From Pectinatus haikarae (GTDB lineage: Bacteria > Bacillota > Negativicutes > Selenomonadales > Selenomonadaceae): DNA of 64,000 nt. Below the pieces are notes generated by a model. The model was not told the DNA's origin and did no database searches. It saw nothing but the letters and a program-made list of their open reading frames with translations. The stretch covers positions 62,001 through 126,000 of the forward strand of contig NZ_WIQM01000007.1 in NCBI RefSeq assembly GCF_015732185.1. Direction: 5' to 3'. Numbering within the stretch: position 1 is the stretch's first letter; the number at the start of each line of letters is the position of its first letter. The translations under genes and the position numbers were made by a program. Below are positions 44,782-60,120 of the stretch, piece by piece.

Positions 44782-47700
44782 GTTTCAATCCACGCGCCCA
44801 TAAGGGTGTGACCATTACGCTGCCAGCAGGCATATCATTCCTTGCGTTTCAATCCACGCACCCATGAAGGGTGCGACGTAATCCCATCCCGATATCGTAC
44901 CGTTACTTTTACGTTTCAATCCACGCACCCATGAAGGGTGCGACGCGTATGGGAGCCGATCCGATGTTATTGATGCAGTTTCAATCCACGCACCCATAAA
45001 GGGTGCGACGAGATTAGCGGACATGACCAGTAGCGGAAATGAGAGTTTCAATCCACGCACCCATAAAGGGTGCGACTGATATCAAATTAGATATCATTAG
45101 TGACTATTATGTTTCAATCCACGCACCCATAAAGGGTGCGACGCAATATCGCCATACCCAACAGTGGTTGTTGTGACGTTTCAATCCACGCACCCATAAA
45201 GGGTGCGACGCAATATCGCCATACCCAACAGTGGTTGTTGTAACGTTTCAATCCACGCACCCATAAAGGGTGCGACTATTGCAGACGCACAGTCATATAC
45301 AGAAATATTGAGTTTCAATCCACGCACCCATAAAGGGTGCGACTTGAAGATGAGCTCAATAAAGCACAGCTAATGAGTTTCAATCCACGCACCCATAAAG
45401 GGTGCGACCAAAGATGTCTTGACCGCTGCCGGATATGCTGAAGTTTCAATCCACGCACCCATAAAGGGTGCGACCAAAGATGTCTTGACCGCTGCCGGAT
45501 ATGCTGAAGTTTCAATCCACGCACCCATAAAGGGTGCGACCAGCTCCATGCGTGCAGCATAAGCCGGATCAATGTTTCAATCCACGCACCCATAAAGGGT
45601 GCGACTACCGCTGCAGTCGCTTCTTTTCGCGTTACACCGTTTCAATCCACGCACCCATAAAGGGTGCGACGGAACATTTTCAAAAGAAAAATGGCTTGAT
45701 CATGTTTCAATCCACGCACCCATAAAGGGTGCGACGCTGGTATGCAGTTGACTATAATGGTAATATTTATGTTTCAATCCACGCACCCATAAAGGGTGCG
45801 ACCTGCCGACTTATCATTATTATTGCAGCCAAGCATGTTTCAATCCACGCACCCATAAAGGGTGCGACGCGGTGGTAAGTATGATCTAAATACCAGCTAT
45901 TTTGTTTCAATCCACGCACCCATAAAGGGTGCGACGTCTTGATTATCCTGAATAATAATCGGTATTTTTAGTTTCAATCCACGCACCCATAAAGGGTGCG
46001 ACAATGGCAAGGCACAATAACCACGACAGCAGGTAAGTTTCAATCCACGCACCCATAAAGGGTGCGACTTTTTAGAGAGCAGTCCGAGAATGCGTTGTTT
46101 GATGTTTCAATCCACGCACCCATAAAGGGTGCGACTTATTAGACTATCATATAGTGCTTTCTTATCTGCGTTTCAATCCACGCACCCATAAAGGGTGCGA
46201 CTTGGGTGACGGATGGCGTCAACCAAGAATATATCCGTTTCAATCCACGCACCCATAAAGGGTGCGACGATCTATGCACCGTCTTATTAATATCTACAGT
46301 GTGTTTCAATCCACGCACCCATAAAGGGTGCGACAAATATATGCTATAGAATGCAATACTACATTATTGTTTCAATCCACGCACCCATAAAGGGTGCGAC
46401 TTTTCATAATGATCATTAATTTCTTCAATATCGTCGTTTCAATCCACGCACCCATAAAGGGTGCGACGCAGGTGCTATATTGCATCTAATACTAAACTCA
46501 GGTTTCAATCCACGCACCCATAAAGGGTGCGACTTAATAGCATTTTCTTCCACCAGATTATTAGGTGTTTCAATCCACGCACCCATAAAGGGTGCGACTA
46601 GAGAATTTATTTTTAGTAGTATTTCCTTCAATGTTTCAATCCACGCACCCATAAAGGGTGCGACGTTATAAGGCTATATAATAAAGTATATCCAAGACGT
46701 TTCAATCCACGCACCCATAAAGGGTGCGACATTCCCAACACAACGAGACTTAAAAATATATCTTGTTTCAATCCACGCACCCATAAAGGGTGCGACGTAT
46801 ACCTACTGACTGGCACAATCAACAGTATTAAGTTTCAATCCACGCACCCATAAAGGGTGCGACGAGATTGACCATTCTGCCATTAGTGAAATTATGTCGT
46901 TTCAATCCACGCACCCATAAAGGGTGCGACACGGTATAAATAGTTTTATCAACTCGTATGATGAAGTTTCAATCCACGCACCCATAAAGGGTGCGACGGA
47001 AAACAAATAATGGACTTTCATCACCGCAAGTTTCAATCCACGCACCCATAAAGGGTGCGACGATTTTAGCGACAGCATTCAATATCAGCAGAATTAGTTT
47101 CAATCCACGCACCCATAAAGGGTGCGACGCAAGAATCTGGTAAACGATTTAATCAATATTTAGTTTCAATCCACGCACCCATAAAGGGTGCGACTTTTGT
47201 GCGAAAGTAATTCCCTATTATGTTTGTCGTTTCAATCCACGCACCCATAAAGGGTGCGACGTTTCATGCCAGTCAGGGCGCGTAAATTCAACAGATGTTT
47301 CAATCCACGCACCCATAAAGGGTGCGACTAAGGGTGTTTTCGCATATCCCCGTTATTGTTTCGTTTCAATCCACGCACCCATAAAGGGTGCGACGTTGAT
47401 CGGCGATTATCGCCGGGCGATGTCGGGTTTCAATCCACGCACCCATAAAGGGTGCGACACACTTTTGTAAGGTTTTTACCCCTAGCAGAATACGTTTCAA
47501 TCCACGCACCCATAAAGGGTGCGACTAGTGCCATCAAGTACGATGTCACCTGTTATATTGTTTCAATCCACGCACCCATAAAGGGTGCGACGTGCCATTG
47601 ATGTTTATTCCAGGAGCCGGTGAAGCGTTTCAATCCACGCACCCATAAAGGGTGCGACTAATGATGGGGGTGAGCAGATGAGCGATACATTAGTTTCAAT

Positions 47701-50700
47701 CCACGCACCCATAAAGGGTGCGACTCCTCATTTCGTTGTTCTGCTTCGTACGTCATAGTTTCAATCCACGCACCCATAAAGGGTGCGACATCCTTTATAT
47801 TTGGATCCTTTATGCCATACAACGTTTCAATCCACGCACCCATAAAGGGTGCGACGTGACGATGTTGACGGTAACGGGACACCACTTAATGTTTCAATCC
47901 ACGCACCCATAAAGGGTGCGACGTAATTACTCCGCTGCTGTCAGCTGTTGCTGTATGTTTCAATCCACGCACCCATAAAGGGTGCGACTAGAGCTTTTCC
48001 AAAAAAAGTAATCTTGCTAATTGTTTCAATCCACGCACCCATAAAGGGTGCGACTGAAAACTATATTTGGGCGGTGCTACATAACGCGTTTCAATCCACG
48101 CACCCATAAAGGGTGCGACCTCCTGTGGGCGTCTCGTCATCTGTGACGAGTCGCGTTTCAATCCACGCACCCATAAAGGGTGCGACAAGACAATCTAGCA
48201 TTTGTTGGGAAACCAGTGACGTTTCAATCCACGCACCCATAAAGGGTGCGACGCAATAGAGGTGTGCTCAACAGCTCCGTTACTAATGTTTCAATCCACG
48301 CACCCATAAAGGGTGCGACATGTTAACCGGATTTGTCGCTGCATTTAATCAGTGTTTCAATCCACGCACCCATAAAGGGTGCGACAAGACAATCTAGCAT
48401 TTGTTGGGAAACCAGTGACGTTTCAATCCACGCACCCATAAAGGGTGCGACGCAATAGAGGTGTGCTCAACAGCTCCGTTACTAATGTTTCAATCCACGC
48501 ACCCATAAAGGGTGCGACATGTTAACCGGATTTGTCGCTGCATTTAATCAGTGTTTCAATCCACGCACCCATAAAGGGTGCGACAAAGCCGTTTGTCTAT
48601 GCACTTGATACTACTCTGCGTTTCAATCCACGCACCCATAAAGGGTGCGACGCCTCCTTTAAATCCGCTTCCGCCTTGAGTTTACGTTTCAATCCACGCA
48701 CCCATAAAGGGTGCGACGTCGCTTATCTTGAAGTAGTGCCACTGGCTAATAGTTTCAATCCACGCACCCATAAAGGGTGCGACATGGGGGACTGGTACCC
48801 GGATCACGGTGCGAAGTTGTTTCAATCCACGCACCCATAAAGGGTGCGACTTGAGACGGTTATTTTTCCGGCCGGGGTAACTTTGTTTCAATCCACGCAC
48901 CCATAAAGGGTGCGACGTGGGCACATGGATAAAAACCTATCTGGACGGTAAGTTTCAATCCACGCACCCATAAAGGGTGCGACGGGGAGACGCGAACGCG
49001 CCCAAAGCAGGCGATGCGTTTCAATCCACGCACCCATAAAGGGTGCGACGCAACAGCAATAAATATTACAACGACACTTAATATGTTTCAATCCACGCAC
49101 CCATAAAGGGTGCGACGTGCAAAACGATCCGGAATATGATCGTAAAGAGCGTTTCAATCCACGCACCCATAAAGGGTGCGACGCGTCCATTTTACAGCCA
49201 CCGAACACGGTCCGGCGTTTCAATCCACGCACCCATAAAGGGTGCGACTCCGCGATAGTCGGCAGCTCCGAAAAGAATTGGGGTTTCAATCCACGCACCC
49301 ATAAAGGGTGCGACTACATGAAAACATAATCCCATCCGTAAGCCATGTGTTTCAATCCACGCACCCATAAAGGGTGCGACGTTTAGCAATTTTCCAGAGA
49401 CTTTCCTGAGTACTAGTTTCAATCCACGCACCCATAAAGGGTGCGACTAGCTTGATAAGTTGATATTCCAATACCACCAAACGTTTCAATCCACGCACCC
49501 ATAAAGGGTGCGACTTCAAGCACGAATCCGCATCCAGCATTTATCAAAGTTTCAATCCACGCACCCATAAAGGGTGCGACTTACTCCTTTAACCGTGAAT
49601 AATCGTAACTTATGTTTCAATCCACGCACCCATAAAGGGTGCGACTCCGTGACAATTTTATGCTTTCCGGCTTCATACAAGTTTCAATCCACGCACCCAT
49701 AAAGGGTGCGACGTACGCGGCTGTGTGCTGCCCCCGGTACTTGATGTTTCAATCCACGCACCCATAAAGGGTGCGACTTATTCCCAGATGCAGAATCTTG
49801 TTCACAAGGTGTTTCAATCCACGCACCCATAAAGGGTGCGACTTGCTCTGCACCATGCAGCAGGCAATAGAATTTGTGTTTCAATCCACGCACCCATAAA
49901 GGGTGCGACGTAGCGTTTCGGGCTTATGGTTCGGGCGACTATATGTTTCAATCCACGCACCCATAAAGGGTGCGACGGCAAGTGGCTTATAAATTCCGTC
50001 GTTGATACTGCGTTTCAATCCACGCACCCATAAAGGGTGCGACTCACAGACGGCGTAAATCAGGAATACATTCAAGTGTTTCAATCCACGCACCCATAAA
50101 GGGTGCGACGATGCACTTTTAGGATATATTGACGGCGGTGATGTTTCAATCCACGCACCCATAAAGGGTGCGACGAGTATTATCAGTCCCAGAAGATTTA
50201 CTACCCATGTTTCAATCCACGCACCCATAAAGGGTGCGACTGTTCGTTCTTCTGAATATGCACCTATACGTACGTTTCAATCCACGCACCCATAAAGGGT
50301 GCGACGGAACGTACTACCTTTAATCGGCACGCAATAGGTGTTTCAATCCACGCACCCATAAAGGGTGCGACTATATGCTGATAACTTACTGTTTCAGGCT
50401 CATACGTTTCAATCCACGCACCCATAAAGGGTGCGACGTTCCATCCTCTGCAGCGGCATGTTTCTTTTTGCTGTTTCAATCCACGCACCCATAAAGGGTG
50501 CGACTTTATAATTCCACCATTTACGTTTGCCATAATTTGTTTCAATCCACGCACCCATAAAGGGTGCGACGAGGTGAGTTGATGGCTGAACGCAGGATGT
50601 TTACAGTTTCAATCCACGCACCCATAAAGGGTGCGACACCGAAAATCAAGTTTCAGACAACATTCCTGAACGTTTCAATCCACGCACCCATAAAGGGTGC

Positions 50701-51825
50701 GACTTTGCCCAGTCTGGTATTCTGCCGTCTCTATCTGCGTTTCAATCCACGCACCCATAAAGGGTGCGACGTCACACTTTTTTGCTTTCCGGTCGGGGAT
50801 AAAATGTTTCAATCCACGCACCCATAAAGGGTGCGACGATTTTTCCATTTTAGTTGCAACGGCCTGACACAGTTTCAATCCACGCACCCATAAAGGGTGC
50901 GACGTTGATTATTTTTGTATTGCCATTTTTTGTAACGTTTCAATCCACGCACCCATAAAGGGTGCGACCAGACATTTTTACTTTTAGGCGGGTTAAATGA
51001 ATGTTTCAATCCACGCACCCATAAAGGGTGCGACGGAAGCACCAAAAAAATAATCCGCTCCGATGGCAGTTTCAATCCACGCACCCATAAAGGGTGCGAC
51101 AAATTCAATATACGCAGACCGGAAAGGCGGTAGCGTTTCAATCCACGCACCCATAAAGGGTGCGACGACGATCTTGAAGAATTAAAATCCGAACTTGCTA
51201 GTTTCAATCCACGCACCCATAAAGGGTGCGACGATTACAGAAAGCTTTAAAAGAAATTCCAGAAAAGTTTCAATCCACGCACCCATAAAGGGTGCGACAC
51301 TAAACGGTATGTTGATGCTAAATTAAAATAGCGTTTCAATCCACGCACCCATAAAGGGTGCGACTATCACAAGGCAATATGTTAGAGAACATATAGAGTT
51401 TCAATCCACGCACCCATAAAGGGTGCGACTATATCGCGATATATCGCGCGCCAAGGACTTATAGTTTCAATCCACGCACCCATAAAGGGTGCGACTAGCT
51501 GCGGTAAACGCAGGAACAGCTGAAAGTGCGTTTCAATCCACGCACCCATAAAGGGTGCGACGTGGTCGCTGGCTTTACGATACACGGCAGTTGATGTTTC
51601 AATCCACGCACCCATAAAGGGTGCGACATGAGCCAAACGGCGGGAAAAAATCGGATGAAATGTTTCAATCCACGCACCCATAAAGGGTGCGACAAACAGC
51701 GCGTGTATTCGTTGGCTGTTGAAATACGTTTCAATCCACGCACCCATAAAGGGTGCGACGACGGCACCGACAGGCAGCCAGCAAGCCGGAAATGTTTCAA
51801 TCCACGCACCCATAAAGGGTGCGAC
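44782..51825 (-). CRISPR. Type I-C CRISPR array, about 107 repeats and 106 spacers
   Basis: A 32-base repeat beginning GTTTCAATCC and ending GGGTGCGAC as written on the plus strand, with a 7-bp inverted repeat CGCACCC/GGGTGCG. Hand count gives 107 repeats, spacing 64-68, spacers of 32-36 bases (mostly 34). In crRNA sense (minus strand) it starts GTCGCACCC and ends TGGATTGAAAC, so Cas5 cleavage at the stem base would leave that 11-base handle. The distal end (44782) is a degenerate 31-base repeat; repeats 2 and 3 (44846, 44913) keep CATGAAGGG, all later ones read CATAAAGGG. The leader is at the 51826 side, next to cas2. At least four spacers are exact duplicates of others. Confidence 0.99.
48155..48552. 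repeat. 199-bp tandem duplication inside the CRISPR array (three spacers, twice)
   Basis: The block from 48155 to 48353 (three repeat-spacer units, spacers beginning AAGACAATCTAG, GCAATAGAGGTG and ATGTTAACCGG) recurs unchanged at 48354-48552. All three spacers and their order are identical, so the second copy arose by unequal recombination between repeats or replication slippage and not by new acquisition. Confidence 0.95.
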
Positions 51826-52050
51826 AGCAAAAAAATCGATTATTATCTTTTTTAATTATAACAAACTAATCTATAATTAGTATATACGAGATACTACAAG
51901 AAAAATTTAAATAATCAGCTTTTTTGCCCGAATTTATCGGATATAATCCTTTAAATTCGTAATATAGTTTTGAAAATGAATTTTGTAGAATCTAAAATTC
52001 ATTTTTATGCTTAAAAAGCATGCGTTTTTTCTGTTTACTTACCTTTCGCA
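51826..52050 (-). promoter_or_regulatory. CRISPR leader
   Basis: 225 bases between cas2 and the newest repeat, very AT-rich. On the minus strand it reads from the cas2 stop toward the array. It holds a terminator-like inverted repeat (51973-52005), a smaller one ATGCTT/AAGCAT near 52008-52022, and near the array TATAAT (51860-51855) as a possible -10 element without a clear -35. It should carry the array promoter and the sequences recognised by Cas1-Cas2 for integration. Confidence 0.75.
51973..52005 (-). terminator. Inverted repeat past cas2, possible cas operon terminator
   Basis: AAAATGAATTTT (51973-51984) and AAAATTCATTTT (51994-52005) are perfect 12-base inverted arms with a 9-base loop. 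On the minus strand the stem ends in TTTTC. It lies about 45 bases past the cas2 stop and could end the cas transcript before the array, or act as a leader protein-binding site. Confidence 0.45.
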
Positions 52051-52341
52051 CTAAATAATAATAGGGCCTTCAATATCATAAGAGACTCTAACTCCTATAT
52101 GTTTCACTTTTGCTCCTTTTGAACTGCCCAAATAGTAAAATCGTAAACTATCCTGCTTGGGGTCTATAATTTTTTCGAGATCAATTTCGATTTTTTTGCA
52201 CTGCGCGGGGTCAATTTTACATTCAAACACAGAATTTTGTACTCTTTGTCCAAAATTTACACATATCTTAGCTACTTTGCGCAAGCGTCTTTTACCTTTC
52301 TCATCTACAGTAGAAATATCGTATGTGATTAAGACAAACAT
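52051..52341 (-). CDS. cas2: CRISPR-associated endonuclease Cas2
   Basis: 96 residues with the start MFVLITYDIST (conserved Asp D8) and the ferredoxin-like fold; SVFECKIDPAQ and RFYYLG are typical. It dimerises and bridges two Cas1 dimers in spacer integration. It is the last cas gene, 9 bases after cas1, and borders the leader. Confidence 0.97.
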   Translation of the reverse strand: MFVLITYDISTVDEKGKRRLRKVAKICVNFGQRVQNSVFECKIDPAQCKKIEIDLEKIIDPKQDSLRFYYLGSSKGAKVKHIGVRVSYDIEGPIII

Positions 52342-52350
52342 AACTATTAC

Positions 52351-53382
52351 CTACTTCCATAGAAATGGTGGATAAGTATCCAGGTCATTACGAATACACC
52401 TAGCAAGCAAAATTGCCTGTACATGTGGAACCAGTCCCCATTTTATTTTTTCCTCTAAAAAAGGATGCGTTATCTGTTCTTCTTTATGTGCATGCCATGC
52501 TTCAAGTACTAGCTTCCGTGCATCGTCTGTCATCAGAACAGCACCATTTTCTTTTTGTATAAAGCCATTTTCAGTAATTTTTTTCCTATTTACCATGGTT
52601 ACTGCTACTCTATCTGCTAAAATTGGACGAAACTCTTCCATCATATCAAAGGCTAAAGACTGACGTCCCGGTCTGTCACGATGAAGAAAACCAACGTATG
52701 AATCAAGTCCGACACCTTCTAAAGCACTTGCAATATCATTTGCCAAAAGCGCATAAATGAAGGATAGTAAACAGTTCATATTATCTAACGGTGGCCTTTT
52801 ATTTCTTTCCTTAAAGAAAAAATTTTCTTTTTGATTGAGAATCATGTCATCAAAAACAGAAAAATAAAGAACTGCTGCTTTGCCCTCTATTCCCCGTAAT
52901 TCGTCCATATCTTTTGCCGCTAATATATGCTGCATTTGTTCTTGTATATGATCGATGGCCTTTTGTAATTTATCGACAGCTACCCGCATGGGATGGTCTC
53001 GCTTAGTCCGTTCCAAAACCCATTTACTATTATACAACTTTCCTGCGATAAAGCATTTTGCCAGATTCAGGCTGTTATCCTCACTATCTGCCCATCTGTA
53101 CTGTTCCTTGCGCAGCAGCACATTTCCATTTGTTTTGCCGATTACTCTTGCCATAAAACGGCCTTCTGGTGTCATAAAATTCAAAGCAATATTTTTTTCT
53201 GCACATTTTTTCATTAATGCCGGACTAGCCCCAGTATAACCGAAAGTAGTGATTTGTTCAAAATTATGCAAGGGAAATCGCCCCAGTATTTTATCATCTT
53301 TTAATACTACAATATTCTCTCCATCAAGTGATAAATATGCTGTATCCTGGTTCACAAAAAGTGTGTTTAAGAGAGGCTTCAT
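52351..53382 (-). CDS. cas1: CRISPR-associated endonuclease Cas1 (type I-C)
   Basis: 343 residues, the usual Cas1c length. N-terminal beta domain (LNTLFVNQDTAYLSLDGENIVV), then the helical catalytic domain with the metal-site Glu in LRGIEGKAAVLYF, His in VGFLHRDRPGR and acidic residues in FDMMEEFRPILADR. It inserts new spacers at the leader end. It starts inside the cas4 stop (4-base overlap). Confidence 0.97.
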   Translation of the reverse strand: MKPLLNTLFVNQDTAYLSLDGENIVVLKDDKILGRFPLHNFEQITTFGYTGASPALMKKCAEKNIALNFMTPEGRFMARVIGKTNGNVLLRKEQYRWADSEDNSLNLAKCFIAGKLYNSKWVLERTKRDHPMRVAVDKLQKAIDHIQEQMQHILAAKDMDELRGIEGKAAVLYFSVFDDMILNQKENFFFKERNKRPPLDNMNCLLSFIYALLANDIASALEGVGLDSYVGFLHRDRPGRQSLAFDMMEEFRPILADRVAVTMVNRKKITENGFIQKENGAVLMTDDARKLVLEAWHAHKEEQITHPFLEEKIKWGLVPHVQAILLARCIRNDLDTYPPFLWK

Positions 53383-54038
53383 TCCTCCAGCCTCCTTTTT
53401 ATATAAAATTGAGCTGATTTCTTTTTGTTCAATTTAGGTATACAGATATCCTTTACTGAGCAATTTGCACATCCCTTTCGTTTCTTTACCAGTGGCGTAT
53501 AGCTGCGTTTAAGATAGTCCCTCATTTGCCGCAGCATCTCGCGAACATGTTCTTTTATTGTCTCATCGAATAAAACTTTCATACGACGACGAATCTCAGC
53601 ATAATAGAAGAATCCAACGGGAATATCCACCGCCAGCATTTCTTCCAGACACATAGACTGTACTGTCAGCTGCAGCAAATCTTCTTCGCCTTCTTTTGGC
53701 CGTCCGCGTTTATACTCTATTGGTACTATCCGATATTTCCCCTGATAAGACGGAATTGATATCCCTGTTTTATCAGCTATGAACTCAACCACATCACAGG
53801 TACCACAAATACCCAGTTCACGCGACATGACTGGCATGCCACGGACTGTAATGCAATTTTTGCGTTTTTCCTTTATGCTTTCATCATGTGCCCTGTCATG
53901 CAATGCATGTCCTTCTACAGTTAAAACATTCTCCTGCCACTGGTTTTCCAAATAGGCAATTGCCCATTGCCGCGGACAATAGGCAAAATGTTGAATTTCA
54001 GCTATTTGGAGATACTTATCTTCTTCATAAACCATCAT
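53379..54038 (-). CDS. cas4: CRISPR-associated Cas4 (PAM-selecting exonuclease)
   Basis: 219 residues. A RecB-like nuclease with the first cluster cysteine in FAYCPRQWA, the nuclease core (GTCDVVEFI, IVPIEYKRGRPKEGE) and three C-terminal cysteines in GCANCSVKDICIPKL, for a [4Fe-4S] cluster. In type I-C it trims prespacers and enforces PAM choice with Cas1-Cas2. It overlaps cas7 by about 14 bases and cas1 by 4. Confidence 0.96.
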   Translation of the reverse strand: MMVYEEDKYLQIAEIQHFAYCPRQWAIAYLENQWQENVLTVEGHALHDRAHDESIKEKRKNCITVRGMPVMSRELGICGTCDVVEFIADKTGISIPSYQGKYRIVPIEYKRGRPKEGEEDLLQLTVQSMCLEEMLAVDIPVGFFYYAEIRRRMKVLFDETIKEHVREMLRQMRDYLKRSYTPLVKKRKGCANCSVKDICIPKLNKKKSAQFYIKRRLEE

Positions 54039-54933
54039 TTTTTAGCATGCCATCTTCATACATCTCAATTGTAATTCCATCTGTTTTGCGCAGGAATTCA
54101 TCATTGATAATATAGTCTTCAAATTTTCTCGGTAATTCTACATTATCTTTCTTTTCTGTATACATACTCCTATGAACTTTTGCTGAGGACAATCTCCCAG
54201 TCTTATTATCATGCTGTATCCAATAAAATCTGGACATTTCAATACTGCCTTCTGGACGTGCAGACGAAGCGTCATTTTCAAATAATGTAACGAGTGCTTT
54301 TTTTATTTTTTCGGCATCTGCTTCACTAAATCCTGTTTTTTCAGCTAACTGCACATTTATGCTGCCCACAAGCTTATACAAGCCAAACTCAACTCGATGC
54401 TTCATACCCATGGTATCAGAACCCTTCTTATCGCCAGGTTCTCCATTGACGCTTTTGGTGATCTGCATACTTGTCGTAAGTACCGGGTCCAGGCTGACTG
54501 CCGTGTGTATAGATACCGGTCCGCGTACACCGACCGATACAGCATCGACATTCGTCCCTTTCTTTAGAGCAAACACTTGCCCGAAAGCCCGCACATCTAT
54601 CCATATCTTGCATGCTTCATCGGCAAAAAGTCTCGTACGGTTTGCTTCTTTTTCTTTCATTTTTAAAATTTTTTCCATTGTCGGATTACCTTCCACGCGC
54701 GAACGAATACTGTCATAGCCATCATCATTGCGCTCATCAGACATAACAACGATTTTTTCTTTCATATCCTGCAGGCGGTTACGTACTTTTCGCTTGATGC
54801 ATACATCCGAAATCTCCCCATAATTATCGTAATTAGTACGGGGCTGATTACCATTGATTGGGTCTCCGTTCGGATTTGCTCTCTGTACTGTGATAAATCC
54901 AATAAAATCAATTTTATTTGTTAATATCCCCAT
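54025..54933 (-). CDS. cas7: CRISPR-associated Cas7 (Csd2), type I-C backbone
   Basis: 302 residues of the RAMP-type Cas7 family: [29 protein letters not shown] at the start, ISDVCIKRKVRNRLQD and VGVRGPVSIHTAVSLDPV are Csd2 features. Seven copies coat the crRNA in Cascade. The second ATG (54933) is used, 9 bases after AAGGAG; the first is only 3 bases from it. It overlaps the cas8c end by about 20 bases. Confidence 0.96.
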   Translation of the reverse strand: MGILTNKIDFIGFITVQRANPNGDPINGNQPRTNYDNYGEISDVCIKRKVRNRLQDMKEKIVVMSDERNDDGYDSIRSRVEGNPTMEKILKMKEKEANRTRLFADEACKIWIDVRAFGQVFALKKGTNVDAVSVGVRGPVSIHTAVSLDPVLTTSMQITKSVNGEPGDKKGSDTMGMKHRVEFGLYKLVGSINVQLAEKTGFSEADAEKIKKALVTLFENDASSARPEGSIEMSRFYWIQHDNKTGRLSSAKVHRSMYTEKKDNVELPRKFEDYIINDEFLRKTDGITIEMYEDGMLKNDGL

Positions 54934-56920
54934 TATCATTCTCTCCTTTTACAATGTTTATATTCGATGACTGTGCATTTTTCTGCTGCTTTGCCAATAT
55001 ATTTGCTTCACGTTCTTTATCAAATACATAGCTTTGGCAATCAAAGCCTAATAAGAATTTGCTGTTTAGCGGTTCATTTGCTGCAAATTCATTAGGATCA
55101 AATAAATCTGCAATTTCATGCAGCAGTCGTATATCACGCTTATTATAACGCAAAGCTTTTTCTTGATAAGGGATCAGCTTCATCCGTATTGTTTTCCATA
55201 TTTTAAACGGATTTTCGGCAAATGCACTCATATATTTTAATGCGTTCGTCAATCGTTCATTATTCTTTTCAAAGGTTGATCTTTCAATTTTATCTGCTAC
55301 GGCCAGCAATCTTCCATAAAGATACGATCTGTCCCGGTTTTCGGTATCCAATGCCATTGTATATCCCGTCCTTTCTATTTCGATATTATCTGACCCTGTT
55401 GTTTTATTTTTTGACTCATACCAGCTGCGATTACGTATCATTGTACAGGCAGCCTGTATCAGCTGCTGCCAGTTATAATATTCATCACTCACCGCCATAA
55501 CAGAACGTTTTAGTACACGGTTAACAGCAGAACGCATCATATCCAGCGGTATGATTTTGCCTTGAATAATACAGAAAAACAGTCGTTCTACCGACATTTT
55601 CATCTTGCTTTCACTAGTATTATCTCCGTAAGAGGCCTGTACCAGCTGTTTTGGCAGAGGCACACCTATATACCTCATTCTTTTTTTTGTTTCGCTGTCA
55701 TATTTATTTTGTCTCCATGCCCCTGCGATATGCCATTCTTGTATACGCTGAATGAAGTCATTTTGAGCCATTTCATAATATAAGCAGATGGAAAGCCGTC
55801 CTGGTGTGGCAGCATCAAGCACCATGATATTGACTCTTTCCACTTCGGGAAGTTCGCTTTTATAACCGGCAAGTTCCGCATTGAGTTTCTCAGCAAACCC
55901 CTTCATCGTGTCTGAATATTTTTGGGTACCGCTGTATTTCCTGCGAGAAAGCAGTCTTTCCGTATCTGTAAAAATCTGCGGTAGTTCCTTTCTCCCCCAG
56001 GCAAGAAATATTCGTCCATTAATATTACTTCCCTGATTACGAATAAGCCAGTTAAGCGTATTCATTGCTTTTTGTGAAGTTTCGTATCCTACTGTTACAC
56101 ACTCTGCACCTGTTTCAAAACGTCCGCGAAAGGTGAATCCAGCATTATCGTTACTGGAAATAAGCTTTGCACCGTCACCGGGAAAGCGTATCCCCTTATT
56201 ATGTTTTTCTGCACAAAACATTGATCTGCCCGTGACAAAACAAATGTCTTTTTTGTTCATAAGATACTCATTGCTAAATTTGATATATAGCCGCTGCAAA
56301 CCCATATCCTTCCACAGATCCGGTTCAGTGTCACCCTCTATCAGTACACGAAAGCGGACAAAAGCCTTCAGTATATCGCCGGGGACAACCTGAAAAATCG
56401 GTGGTTTTTCTAAATCCTTGTATGGCCACTTTTGCATAATATTGCCGGTATCATCTTTGTAAAGTATTTTTTGTTCTAGCAAATCATTTATGAGATCGTG
56501 CTCTGATATATACTTATATACTGCCTGTATTTTAGGATGCGTATAAGGAGAAGTAACCCATGACTCCAATAATTTCAAATACAATGTGTATGGTTTTTCA
56601 TCTTTTTTAGATGTTTTTTTACTATACTGATCGAAATCTCTGGCAATATAATGCAGATTATCATGCAGTGGATGTGGTGCGGGCTTTGATGTTCGAGATG
56701 CAGAATCCAATGTGCAAGGAATAAGTGTCGGCTGTTCTTCCTTGATGATTGTTTCTGCCCGACAAAGCTTTCCGGCTGCATCCACTGTAACTTCAATTTG
56801 AGCATTTTGGACCATATGCCCGATCGGGGGCAGGACAAATCTTTTCCCCTGCACATTATATGAACCAGCGAATGCAGCATTATCATCATAAGTTTTAACC
56901 AGTTCGTTCATCCAGCTCAT
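54914..56920 (-). CDS. cas8c: CRISPR-associated Cas8c (Csd1), large subunit of I-C Cascade
   Basis: 668 residues, normal Csd1 length. It starts [19 protein letters not shown], contains [17 protein letters not shown] and [12 protein letters not shown], and ends in a helical region, from which type I-C systems can also make a small Cas11-like subunit by internal translation. It reads the PAM and helps recruit Cas3. It starts within the cas5 stop (4-base overlap). Confidence 0.95.
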
Positions 56921-57636
56921 AATCTGCCTCCTTCCATATCAGCATATTCCTCATCAACAAATCGTACATTGTTTTTATCAAAATGCTTTACTGCCGTTTT
57001 ACGTATATTCTTTACTATAGTACATTTTTCCGGTCGTGGGAAATGGATGATCCCATCTTCCATAACAGCCTGCCACAGTCGCACCTGCAGTAAAGCTCCG
57101 CCAGTTTCGTCGATATAGTTGAAGCCATGAAACATTGTTCCCAAAGGAATGCTTCCCTTTTCTTCATAAAAGCTTTTCTTAACACCGTATGACACAGGTT
57201 CCACATATCCCTGACATTCACGTGTTCCAAGAAAGATATCTCTGCGCCCGCCATGCTCAACCATACGTTTAGCAATATTGTGATGCTTATTTTCGTTGCG
57301 ATCCTGTGCCATATCCGTACGGTGCAGATTAAATTCAAGATGAGCCTTCACCTCGTATTCTACATCACTCAGATATTTATAAATTGCCAGATCATTGCCC
57401 GCCTCATTGTATTTGAGTGGTTTAACACCACGAGATTGAGTACATATCTCATTCATTATTCTGATTTCATCAATATACCAAATAATGGTAGGCTTCCAGT
57501 ATATGCTTTCCGTAATTCCTTTTATAGCCTGATACGTAGGGACTGCGTAAGAAGCCTTTTCTCCTCCGACTTTAGTAAGCGGATCTGTAAATAATGCCAT
57601 ACGTCCATAAACTTTAAACTGAATTTCATTGCGCAT
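56917..57636 (-). CDS. cas5c: CRISPR-associated Cas5 (Cas5c), crRNA-processing
   Basis: 239 residues. A RAMP protein beginning [31 protein letters not shown], the Cas5c pattern. Type I-C lacks Cas6, and Cas5c cuts the precursor crRNA at the repeat stem; no cas6 gene is present here, which agrees. A perfect Shine-Dalgarno (AAGGAGGTGAG) precedes the ATG, the best in the cas operon. It follows cas3 by 12 bases. Confidence 0.96.
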
Positions 57637-57648
57637 TTTCTCACCTCC

Positions 57649-60120
57649 TTAAATAGAAATAAAATCATTTTTCTGCATTTCCAGTTTTACGCCGATTCCT
57701 TCATCGTAGAATTCATCACGCAAAATAAGCACACCGTATTCGGTCTGTCCGATTGCTCCGCAATCTGCCAGATGCCTTAATTCATACGAAAACAAATTAA
57801 CCATATATTGCTGGGCTTCTTTCAGCTTATTATAAAATTCTGCCTTATCATAAAATTGGCTGTTCATCGACACTGCCAATTTATGACCTTTCTCACCGTA
57901 TGGCACCAACACACCTATAGTCTGTGTATCAATTACCTGAAATGCTCTGCCGGCATCACGGAAAGCCTGCATATTACAAAGGTATTCAGTCCTATATTTT
58001 TCTTCGAGGCAATTATTCTTTCCGGCATTGTTGAAAGATAGGGCATCATATAAATTTTGGCCGGATTTTAAACGATAGCGCAGCTGTTCTTCTCTGCTAT
58101 GATAATATGCCGCGAAATATTGCTTCATTATTTCAGGCGATAAAATGTCTTCGGCTTTTATTCGCTGCAGTAAATCCATAGCGGCTTGTGCACCTTTTCG
58201 GATATCCTCTAAATAAAGGAGCTGTTCACCTTGAATATTAAATATTTTAACAACACCATATGAGCTTTCACCATGGCGATTACATCGTCCTGCCGCTTGT
58301 GCGATCGAAGAAAAGCCTGCCAACGCCCGATACACTGTACTAAAGGAGATATCCACACCGGCTTCTATGAGCTGCGTACTTACACAAATCACTTTAAAAT
58401 GGTCGGGTGAGTTCAGAGCTTTACGCAATTTATCCAAGAGCAATTTTCGATGAGCCGGACACATTTTTGTGCTCAGATGGACAAGCAGTATCGTCTCTTC
58501 ACTTTCTTCTGCGTGCTTTTGCAGATGTTCATAAAGCAGCCTTGCCATAGAAGTGGTATTGGCTATACACAGCACTGTCCCGCGCTCAAGTGTGTCCTGC
58601 CAAATCATAGCAGCTATTTCCCCTATCTCATGACCTCCGGGAACACAGATATTCTCTAATCGTACCCGCTTAAAAGCAGCAAAAATACTATCTAAATTAT
58701 CAACCATTTCCGGTGGCTTGGAATAGTGTATTGGAATTTCTATATTACCAAGTTCAGGCTGTGTAGCTGTACAAAGTACCACTGTGGTATTACAAAACCG
58801 ATTTAAAAAATTCAAAGCTTCATTGAACAAAAAACTACACTTGACCGGCAGTGTCTGTATCTCATCAAAAATAATAATACTGTCCTCTAATGCATGCAGC
58901 CGTCTGATTGATTTTGTCCCTCCGGCAAATAATGTATTTAACAACTGCACCTGTGTCGTAAAAATCACTGGTACATCCCATCGCTCTGTCATTGAGCGCC
59001 GCAGCTCTGCCTGATCAGAATAGCCGTCGTCCTCATTCATGACAATTTTATCTTCTCTGGATTTATCAAGATCAACATTCTCTATTACATTTGAATGATG
59101 TTCTAGGATTGCATCATCCATCGCAAAAATGTTTCGTATCTCCCGCGCGTTTTGATCTATAATTGAAGTATACGGTATTACAACGAGAATACGCTTTTTA
59201 TGCCATTTATGCGCATGTTCTAAGGCAAAGCGCATACTGGCCAGGGTTTTTCCACTGCCTGTAGGCACACTCAGCTTATAAATCCCCGGTTCATGTACGG
59301 CAAAGGCAATGCAGTCATCACTGATCTTTTGCCGCGCCTTAACGATCTGCTGTTTTTTGAGATCAGTTTCCCTGGGGATAGCATCCAGGTGTACTTGCAA
59401 CCGCGCAGCAAATTCTTTCCATATGTTTTCAAGGTCCCAAGAACGTTCAAAATGCTTTTCTGCCATAAAATTCGCTGTATCCAGGCGATCCGCGTCAATC
59501 AGCATACTAAATATCATTTTTATCGCCATACCTGTATAAAAATAATATACTTCACCTTGACGTGCTTCATCTGTTTCTTCATCGGCAAAACCCGTGATTT
59601 TATTATTTAACGCAGCTATCTCATGTGCAGCATTTTGAAATAAAGCTTTGAATTTTTCTTCCGAAATTATTTCTTCAAAAAAATTACTCAATACTTCATC
59701 ATAATACGGTAAATCTTTATTCAGTACACGATCCAAGAAGTGAGATGACCCGTTCTGCCCTATGAAATTTTCCAAACCGGTATGATGCGAAAGGAGTGCC
59801 ATAGACAGCCATTCACTGGCTAAGCTTTCTTCATCTGAACCGTTATGATACTTAGCATATATATATTTTGCCGCGGCTGTTGAATGATCTATCTTTTGCC
59901 CACTTTTTAATGACGTGGTATTTTCGTGACTGACAATAATATATGCACGAAAGCTTTCGCATAATTTCCCCATATCATGCAGTATGCCCATAAGCCTGCC
60001 TGTCATTGACAGCCCCAGATTTGCAGCAAAATGTTCGGCAAAATCTGCCGTATTCCAACTGTGTTCACGTACACTCTGCATCTCATTATTTTCATTTCTA
60101 ATATGTGCAATACTTTCCAT
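57649..60120 (-). CDS. cas3: CRISPR-associated helicase-nuclease Cas3
   Basis: 823 residues: N-terminal HD nuclease with H20 (REHSWNTAD) and H48-D49 (GILHDMGK), then a superfamily 2 helicase with Walker A PTGSGKT (286-292), DEIQ (419-422), ATQPELG and the later QAAGRCNRHGE motif VI. It is recruited by target-bound Cascade and degrades one DNA strand. It heads the cas operon on the minus strand; AGAGG precedes its ATG, and the divergent PLD gene starts 200 bases away. Confidence 0.97.
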   Translation of the reverse strand: MESIAHIRNENNEMQSVREHSWNTADFAEHFAANLGLSMTGRLMGILHDMGKLCESFRAYIIVSHENTTSLKSGQKIDHSTAAAKYIYAKYHNGSDEESLASEWLSMALLSHHTGLENFIGQNGSSHFLDRVLNKDLPYYDEVLSNFFEEIISEEKFKALFQNAAHEIAALNNKITGFADEETDEARQGEVYYFYTGMAIKMIFSMLIDADRLDTANFMAEKHFERSWDLENIWKEFAARLQVHLDAIPRETDLKKQQIVKARQKISDDCIAFAVHEPGIYKLSVPTGSGKTLASMRFALEHAHKWHKKRILVVIPYTSIIDQNAREIRNIFAMDDAILEHHSNVIENVDLDKSREDKIVMNEDDGYSDQAELRRSMTERWDVPVIFTTQVQLLNTLFAGGTKSIRRLHALEDSIIIFDEIQTLPVKCSFLFNEALNFLNRFCNTTVVLCTATQPELGNIEIPIHYSKPPEMVDNLDSIFAAFKRVRLENICVPGGHEIGEIAAMIWQDTLERGTVLCIANTTSMARLLYEHLQKHAEESEETILLVHLSTKMCPAHRKLLLDKLRKALNSPDHFKVICVSTQLIEAGVDISFSTVYRALAGFSSIAQAAGRCNRHGESSYGVVKIFNIQGEQLLYLEDIRKGAQAAMDLLQRIKAEDILSPEIMKQYFAAYYHSREEQLRYRLKSGQNLYDALSFNNAGKNNCLEEKYRTEYLCNMQAFRDAGRAFQVIDTQTIGVLVPYGEKGHKLAVSMNSQFYDKAEFYNKLKEAQQYMVNLFSYELRHLADCGAIGQTEYGVLILRDEFYDEGIGVKLEMQKNDFISI

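What the first reader, a model, noticed from the sequence alone, without database searches (positions are those of the whole stretch)
44782..51825. Very long type I-C array (about 107 repeats) with an intact cas operon
The array length, nearly invariant repeats for about 104 of 107 units and an intact cas1-cas2-cas4 set point to a system that has been recently and repeatedly active. The spacers are a record of about 100 encounters with phages and plasmids of this host. I cannot search the spacers, so their targets are unknown.
Basis: seen in the sequence. Interest (0 to 1): 0.6.

Follow-up and report, generated by a model that had tools for sequence, protein, structure and literature searches.

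The report
Long, ordinary type I-C CRISPR array
This is a complete, apparently intact bacterial CRISPR immune system of a well-known type (I-C) with an unusually long but not record memory of 106 spacers, six of which (all within spacers 40-48) match one phage lineage; it matters mainly as a well-preserved example, not as something new.

Summary
Confirmed: 107 repeats and 106 spacers at 44782-51825, 104 repeats identical; divergent copies only at the leader-distal end. Upstream on the minus strand lies a complete seven-gene I-C operon (cas3-cas5-cas8c-cas7-cas4-cas1-cas2) with no internal stops, catalytic motifs present, and a probable internal Cas11c start. The array is longer than typical bacterial ones (<50) but far below the record (587). 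Spacer searches gave one exact match (spacer 18, a phage-like element in a sister species) and about ten imperfect, mostly phage-gene matches. Six of spacers 40-48 match one IMG/VR phage lineage, so part of the array records one acquisition episode, not separate encounters. The predicted TTC PAM was not seen; TTT precedes 7 of 11 credible protospacers (background 4%), and TTT is a published I-C PAM. No spacer closely matches the host genome outside the array. Spacers 50-52 are duplicated as 53-55, and 96 as 97. Four sister species lack this repeat; the best Cas1 in the 20 relatives searched is 72% identical, in another genus, and a one-mismatch repeat occurs in Megasphaera massiliensis. Activity itself (RNA, new spacers) was not testable. 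Verdict: a real, intact, ordinary type I-C system; new member of a known kind.

The parts
57649..60120 (-). cas3 (HD nuclease-helicase), 823 aa
   Evidence: PADLOC Cas3c E=5e-199; aligns to solved type I-C Cas3 chains 8zns/8g9u; HD, GSGKT, DEIQ, TATQ, AAGRCNR motifs, no internal stop
56917..57636 (-). cas5c (crRNA-processing subunit), 239 aa
   Evidence: TIGR01876 over cut-off; full-length match to BH0337 4f3m, E=6.5e-94
54914..56920 (-). cas8c (large subunit), 668 aa, longer than the family profiles (525-588 positions)
   Evidence: TIGR01863 over cut-off
54914..55357 (-). probable cas11c small subunit from an internal ATG in cas8c, 147 aa
   Evidence: residues 524-637 of Cas8c match solved Cas11 chain 8g9s_H; AAAGGA upstream of ATG at 55357; start site inferred
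54025..54939 (-). cas7 (backbone), 304 aa
   Evidence: TIGR02589 over cut-off
53379..54038 (-). cas4, 219 aa
   Evidence: TIGR00372 over cut-off; 8d3l_I E=5.6e-69; Cys, D and EYK motifs present
52351..53382 (-). cas1, 343 aa
   Evidence: TIGR03640 I-C Cas1c over cut-off; 8d3l_A E=2.3e-139
52051..52341 (-). cas2, 96 aa
   Evidence: PADLOC Cas2c E=4e-41; TIGR01573 over cut-off
51826..52050 (-). leader, 225 bp, AT-rich, between cas2 and first repeat
   Evidence: position and sequence; promoter scan not above shuffle level
44782..51825 (-). CRISPR array: 107 repeats, 106 spacers; transcribed-strand repeat GTCGCACCCTTTATGGGTGCGTGGATTGAAAC
   Evidence: repeat folds to a 7-bp hairpin, -13.8 kcal/mol, z -3.8
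48652..49216 (-). spacers 40-48 (with the repeats between them): block in which 40, 41, 45, 46, 47, 48 match one phage lineage
48187..48552 (-). duplicated three-spacer block, spacers 50-52 = 53-55
50638..50671 (-). spacer 18: 34/34 match to a phage-like giant gene in sister species G002:C11:15065-15098, preceded by TTT
45143..45244 (-). spacers 100 and 101: differ by one base; encode VTTTVGYGDIA, the K+ channel selectivity filter
44782..44944 (-). leader-distal end with the three non-consensus repeats (44782, 44846, 44913)

Best explanation
A complete type I-C CRISPR-Cas adaptive immune system. Cas4-Cas1-Cas2 cut PAM-flanked fragments of invading DNA and insert them at the leader (51825 side); the array is transcribed leftwards from the leader; Cas5c cuts each repeat hairpin; the crRNA assembles with Cas5c, Cas7, Cas8c and internally started Cas11c; the complex binds protospacers preceded on the 5' side by a PAM, most likely TTT, and recruits Cas3 to degrade the DNA. 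The length arose by normal leader-end growth, with runs taken from one phage (spacers 40-48, possibly by priming) and a few repeat-mediated duplications. Shown here: anatomy, intact reading frames, motifs, phage matches, TTT enrichment. Inferred: expression, activity, priming, order of events.
For: All seven I-C families over curated cut-offs; no internal stops, catalytic motifs present; Cas1, Cas4 and Cas5c align end to end with solved I-C proteins, Cas3 over its HD and helicase part; hairpin repeat; 104 identical repeats with divergence only at the distal end; exact protospacer for spacer 18; six of spacers 40-48 in one phage at 4-9 mismatches, against a best of 11 for reversed-spacer controls; TTT before 7 of 11 credible protospacers, none after, background 0.04, binomial P 5e-8; no close self match.
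Against: No transcript, no second strain, no functional assay. Only spacer 18 has an exact target; the remaining matches are to diverged relatives, so four of 11 upstream flanks (spacers 11, 45, 46, 48) are not TTT. Promoter scan of the leader is at chance level.
Confidence: 0.93

Rival explanations
1. The locus is intact in sequence but silent or no longer acquiring; the array is a preserved relic.
For: No close relative carries the same array for comparison; targets of the newest spacers (1-10) were not found with confidence; leader promoter scan at chance.
Against: All cas frames open with motifs; 104 identical repeats, which a long-dead array would be expected to lose; exact match of spacer 18 to an element in a sister species.
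Confidence: 0.1
2. The PAM is the canonical TTC (or a loose TTN/TTY) and the TTT signal comes from diverged relatives and few protospacers.
For: Canonical I-C PAM is TTC (PMC8482600; GAA on the other strand in Legionella I-C, PMC5071653); several non-TTT flanks end in C (spacers 46, 48); only 11 credible protospacers.
Against: 0 of 11 TTC against 7 of 11 TTT; the only exact protospacer has TTT; spacer 41 has TTT in all four phages that match it; TTT is a reported I-C PAM (PMC8482600).
Confidence: 0.2
3. The array length is partly an assembly or duplication artefact.
For: A perfect 199-bp three-spacer duplication; the genome is a 17-contig draft.
Against: 102 of 106 spacers are distinct, so collapse or inflation could change the count by only about four units.
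Confidence: 0.05

Closest known systems
Alkalihalobacillus (Bacillus) halodurans type I-C system (Cas5c 4f3m; Cas4-Cas1-Cas2 8d3l; organism names from memory)
   Same: Same gene set; Cas1, Cas4 and Cas5c align full length; CRISPR oligo GTCGCACTCTTCATGGGTGCGTGGATTGAAAT in PMC6519985 is close to this repeat
   Different: That system uses TTC (GAA on the complementary strand); here TTT is indicated
Megasphaera massiliensis NP3 type I-C locus (L010)
   Same: Cas8c relative (46%) and a repeat with one mismatch
   Different: Only three such repeats in the 22-kb stretch held
Legionella pneumophila Toronto-2005 type I-C (PMC5071653)
   Same: Seven cas genes and one downstream array; shown to interfere and to acquire multiple spacers under priming
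   Different: 43 spacers; GAA/TTC PAM; activity tested there, not here
Lachnoclostridium I-C repeat cluster with TTT PAM (PMC8482600, Table 1)
   Same: I-C with TTT PAM
   Different: Not compared at protein level here
Haliangium ochraceum array of 587 spacers (PMC8047081, PMC7145573)
   Same: Long array
   Different: More than five times longer

Membership tests
type I-C CRISPR-Cas | cas3-cas5c-cas8c(csd1)-cas7(csd2)-cas4-cas1-cas2 with no cas6 | tested here: met
   NCBIfam/PADLOC I-C models over cut-off in that order; no Cas6 model hit among these genes; genome-wide absence of cas6 not tested
type I-C CRISPR-Cas | signature Cas8c/Csd1 | tested here: met
   TIGR01863 equivalog 318.8 bits against cut-off 218.65
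type I-C CRISPR-Cas | about 32-nt palindromic repeat ending GGATTGAAAC, spacers about 33-36 nt | tested here: met
type I-C CRISPR-Cas | Cas11c from an internal start in cas8c | tested here: inconclusive
   Cas11 homology at residues 524-637 and an ATG with RBS-like upstream sequence; translation not tested
type I-C CRISPR-Cas | 5' PAM, canonical TTC | tested here: inconclusive
   5' PAM signal found, but TTT rather than TTC; TTT is within the published I-C range
type I-C CRISPR-Cas | crRNA-guided interference and spacer acquisition | not testable with these tools
   needs RNA-seq and transformation assays

The most novel reading that the evidence does not exclude
A type I-C lineage in this bacterial class that acquires and uses TTT-flanked targets, with a K+-channel gene on a mobile element among its targets (spacers 100/101).
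Probability: 0.3. Interest if true: 0.25.

Novelty: new member of a known kind. Interest (0 to 1): 0.2.

Why it matters
It is a well-preserved I-C system with about 100 distinct spacers, enough to work out the PAM, the phages and the acquisition history of a little-studied bacterial group once its phages are sequenced. Mechanistically it adds nothing that is not known for type I-C.

Tried and rejected
Spacers against annotated phages and plasmids: only weak matches (Enterococcus phage and plasmids at the K+ channel motif, Blautia phage terminase). Self-targeting: rejected, no close match in the own genome outside the array and no PF07885 channel gene there. Shared array with sister species (suggested by spacer 18's exact hit in a stretch that at first showed few ORFs): rejected, no repeats there; it is one giant open frame running off the fetched piece. 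Recoded genetic code for that stretch: rejected for the same reason. Viral scans with the G002 giant protein found nothing; with the G003 terminase and the own prophage terminase, no convincing protospacers. Prophages of the family related to the block 40-48 phage gave little beyond spacer 48. Matches at 9-10 mismatches were not counted, since reversed-spacer controls reach 9.

Full report
Observation. A scan of the window finds 107 copies of a 32-nt repeat at 44782-51825 and 106 spacers of 32-36 nt. Of the repeats 104 are identical, two near the left end differ by one base, and the outermost left copy is degenerate. The repeat (up to 3 mismatches) is found 106 times in the genome, which equals the non-degenerate copies of this array, and not in four other species of the genus. 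On the transcribed (minus) strand the repeat reads GTCGCACCCTTTATGGGTGCGTGGATTGAAAC and folds into a 7-bp hairpin, better than 199 of 200 shuffles.

Cas genes. Right of the array, all on the minus strand and running towards it, are cas3, cas5c, cas8c, cas7, cas4, cas1 and cas2, each identified by PADLOC or NCBIfam models with I-C models best where they exist. None has an internal stop. Cas3 has the HD, Walker A, DExQ and helicase motifs and aligns to solved I-C Cas3. Cas5c aligns full length with BH0337, Cas1 and Cas4 with the solved Cas4-Cas1-Cas2 proteins of entry 8d3l. Cas8c residues 524-637 match Cas11 of a solved I-C complex, and an ATG at 55357 preceded by AAAGGA begins this part, as expected from the internal start described for I-C (PMC7684278). 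A 225-bp AT-rich leader separates cas2 from the first repeat, so spacer 1 (51760-51793) should be newest and the degenerate left end oldest.

Length. Typical bacterial arrays have fewer than 50 spacers; more than 100 is uncommon; the record is 587 (PMC8047081, PMC7145573). So 106 is long but not exceptional. Distinct spacers number 102: 50-52 recur as 53-55, 96 as 97. Such blocks are usually read as recombination duplications (PMC8047081).

Targets. A concatenation of the distinct spacers was searched against the genus, family and class genomes, annotated phages and plasmids, and all spacers were compared with viral contigs fetched through phage proteins. Outside the array the own genome has no close match. 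Spacer 18 matches 34/34 in a sister species, inside a roughly 3,000-aa open frame with helicase and phage MuF domains. Spacer 13 matches a prophage terminase large subunit gene at 30/34. Spacer 48 matches a gene directly upstream of gpA-type terminase in many phages (27 hits, up to 31/34). One phage, on two overlapping IMG/VR contigs (L196, L294; that they are one genome is inferred from an identical protein at the join), also matches spacers 46, 40, 45, 47 and 41 at 6-9 mismatches, while no reversed spacer does better than 11. The phage was found through spacer 48, so the other five are the independent evidence; all lie within spacers 40-48 and on both strands. In 200,000 random draws six spacers never fell in a run of nine. 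The simple reading is serial acquisition from one phage lineage, as in priming, which has been shown for Legionella I-C (PMC5071653); priming itself is inferred. Spacers 100/101 encode the K+ channel filter VTTTVGYGDIA; the nearest sequences are channel genes in a sister species (31/35) and Enterococcus replicons; the own genome has no PF07885 gene. Their true source is unknown.

PAM. Among 11 credible protospacers (at most 6 mismatches, or in the 40-48 phage) seven are preceded by TTT, none by TTC; none is followed by TTT; background 0.04; binomial P 5e-8. With all 22 best matches at up to 8 mismatches it is 7 of 22 (P 1.6e-5). The P values take matches as independent and some loci were selected by the spacer match, though not by its flank.

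Relatives. Sister species have only distant Cas1 proteins (27-28%), while Cas1 of 72% and 69% occurs in another genus of the family and in another family of the class, which suggests horizontal gain or loss in relatives; not tested by trees. A Megasphaera massiliensis record carries a repeat with one mismatch. The species of the window was not identified.

Verdict. Ordinary and intact type I-C system with a long array. Activity is likely but not shown.

Noticed in passing
G002:C11 about 14.7-23.6 kb (L065/L066): A roughly 3,000-aa open frame combining a helicase, a possible methyltransferase domain and a phage MuF C-terminal domain, with OLD-like AAA_15, GmrSD-like and DUF4041/T5orf172 genes beside it; it holds the exact protospacer of spacer 18.
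   Followed up: partly
G000:C1 about 669-675 kb and G000:C11 about 160-164 kb (L310, L313): Two nearly identical lambda-type prophage head-gene regions in the window's own genome, neither with a close match to any spacer.
   Followed up: partly
window 45143-45244: Adjacent spacers 100 and 101 differ by one base, synonymous in the K+ channel reading frame: either a duplication plus mutation or two acquisitions from target variants.
   Followed up: no
window 54914-56920: Cas8c has 668 aa, longer than the family profiles of 525-588 positions.
   Followed up: no
L196 and L294 (IMG/VR 3300029984_000060, 3300030294_000332): A contractile-tailed phage with gpA-type terminase and lambda-type portal whose lineage accounts for spacers 40-48; a likely phage of this host or a close relative.
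   Followed up: partly
G003:C17:48721-50040 (L068): Two tandem K+ channel genes of about 260 aa among chromosomal metabolic genes, both resembling spacers 100/101 and both with TTT before the match.
   Followed up: partly
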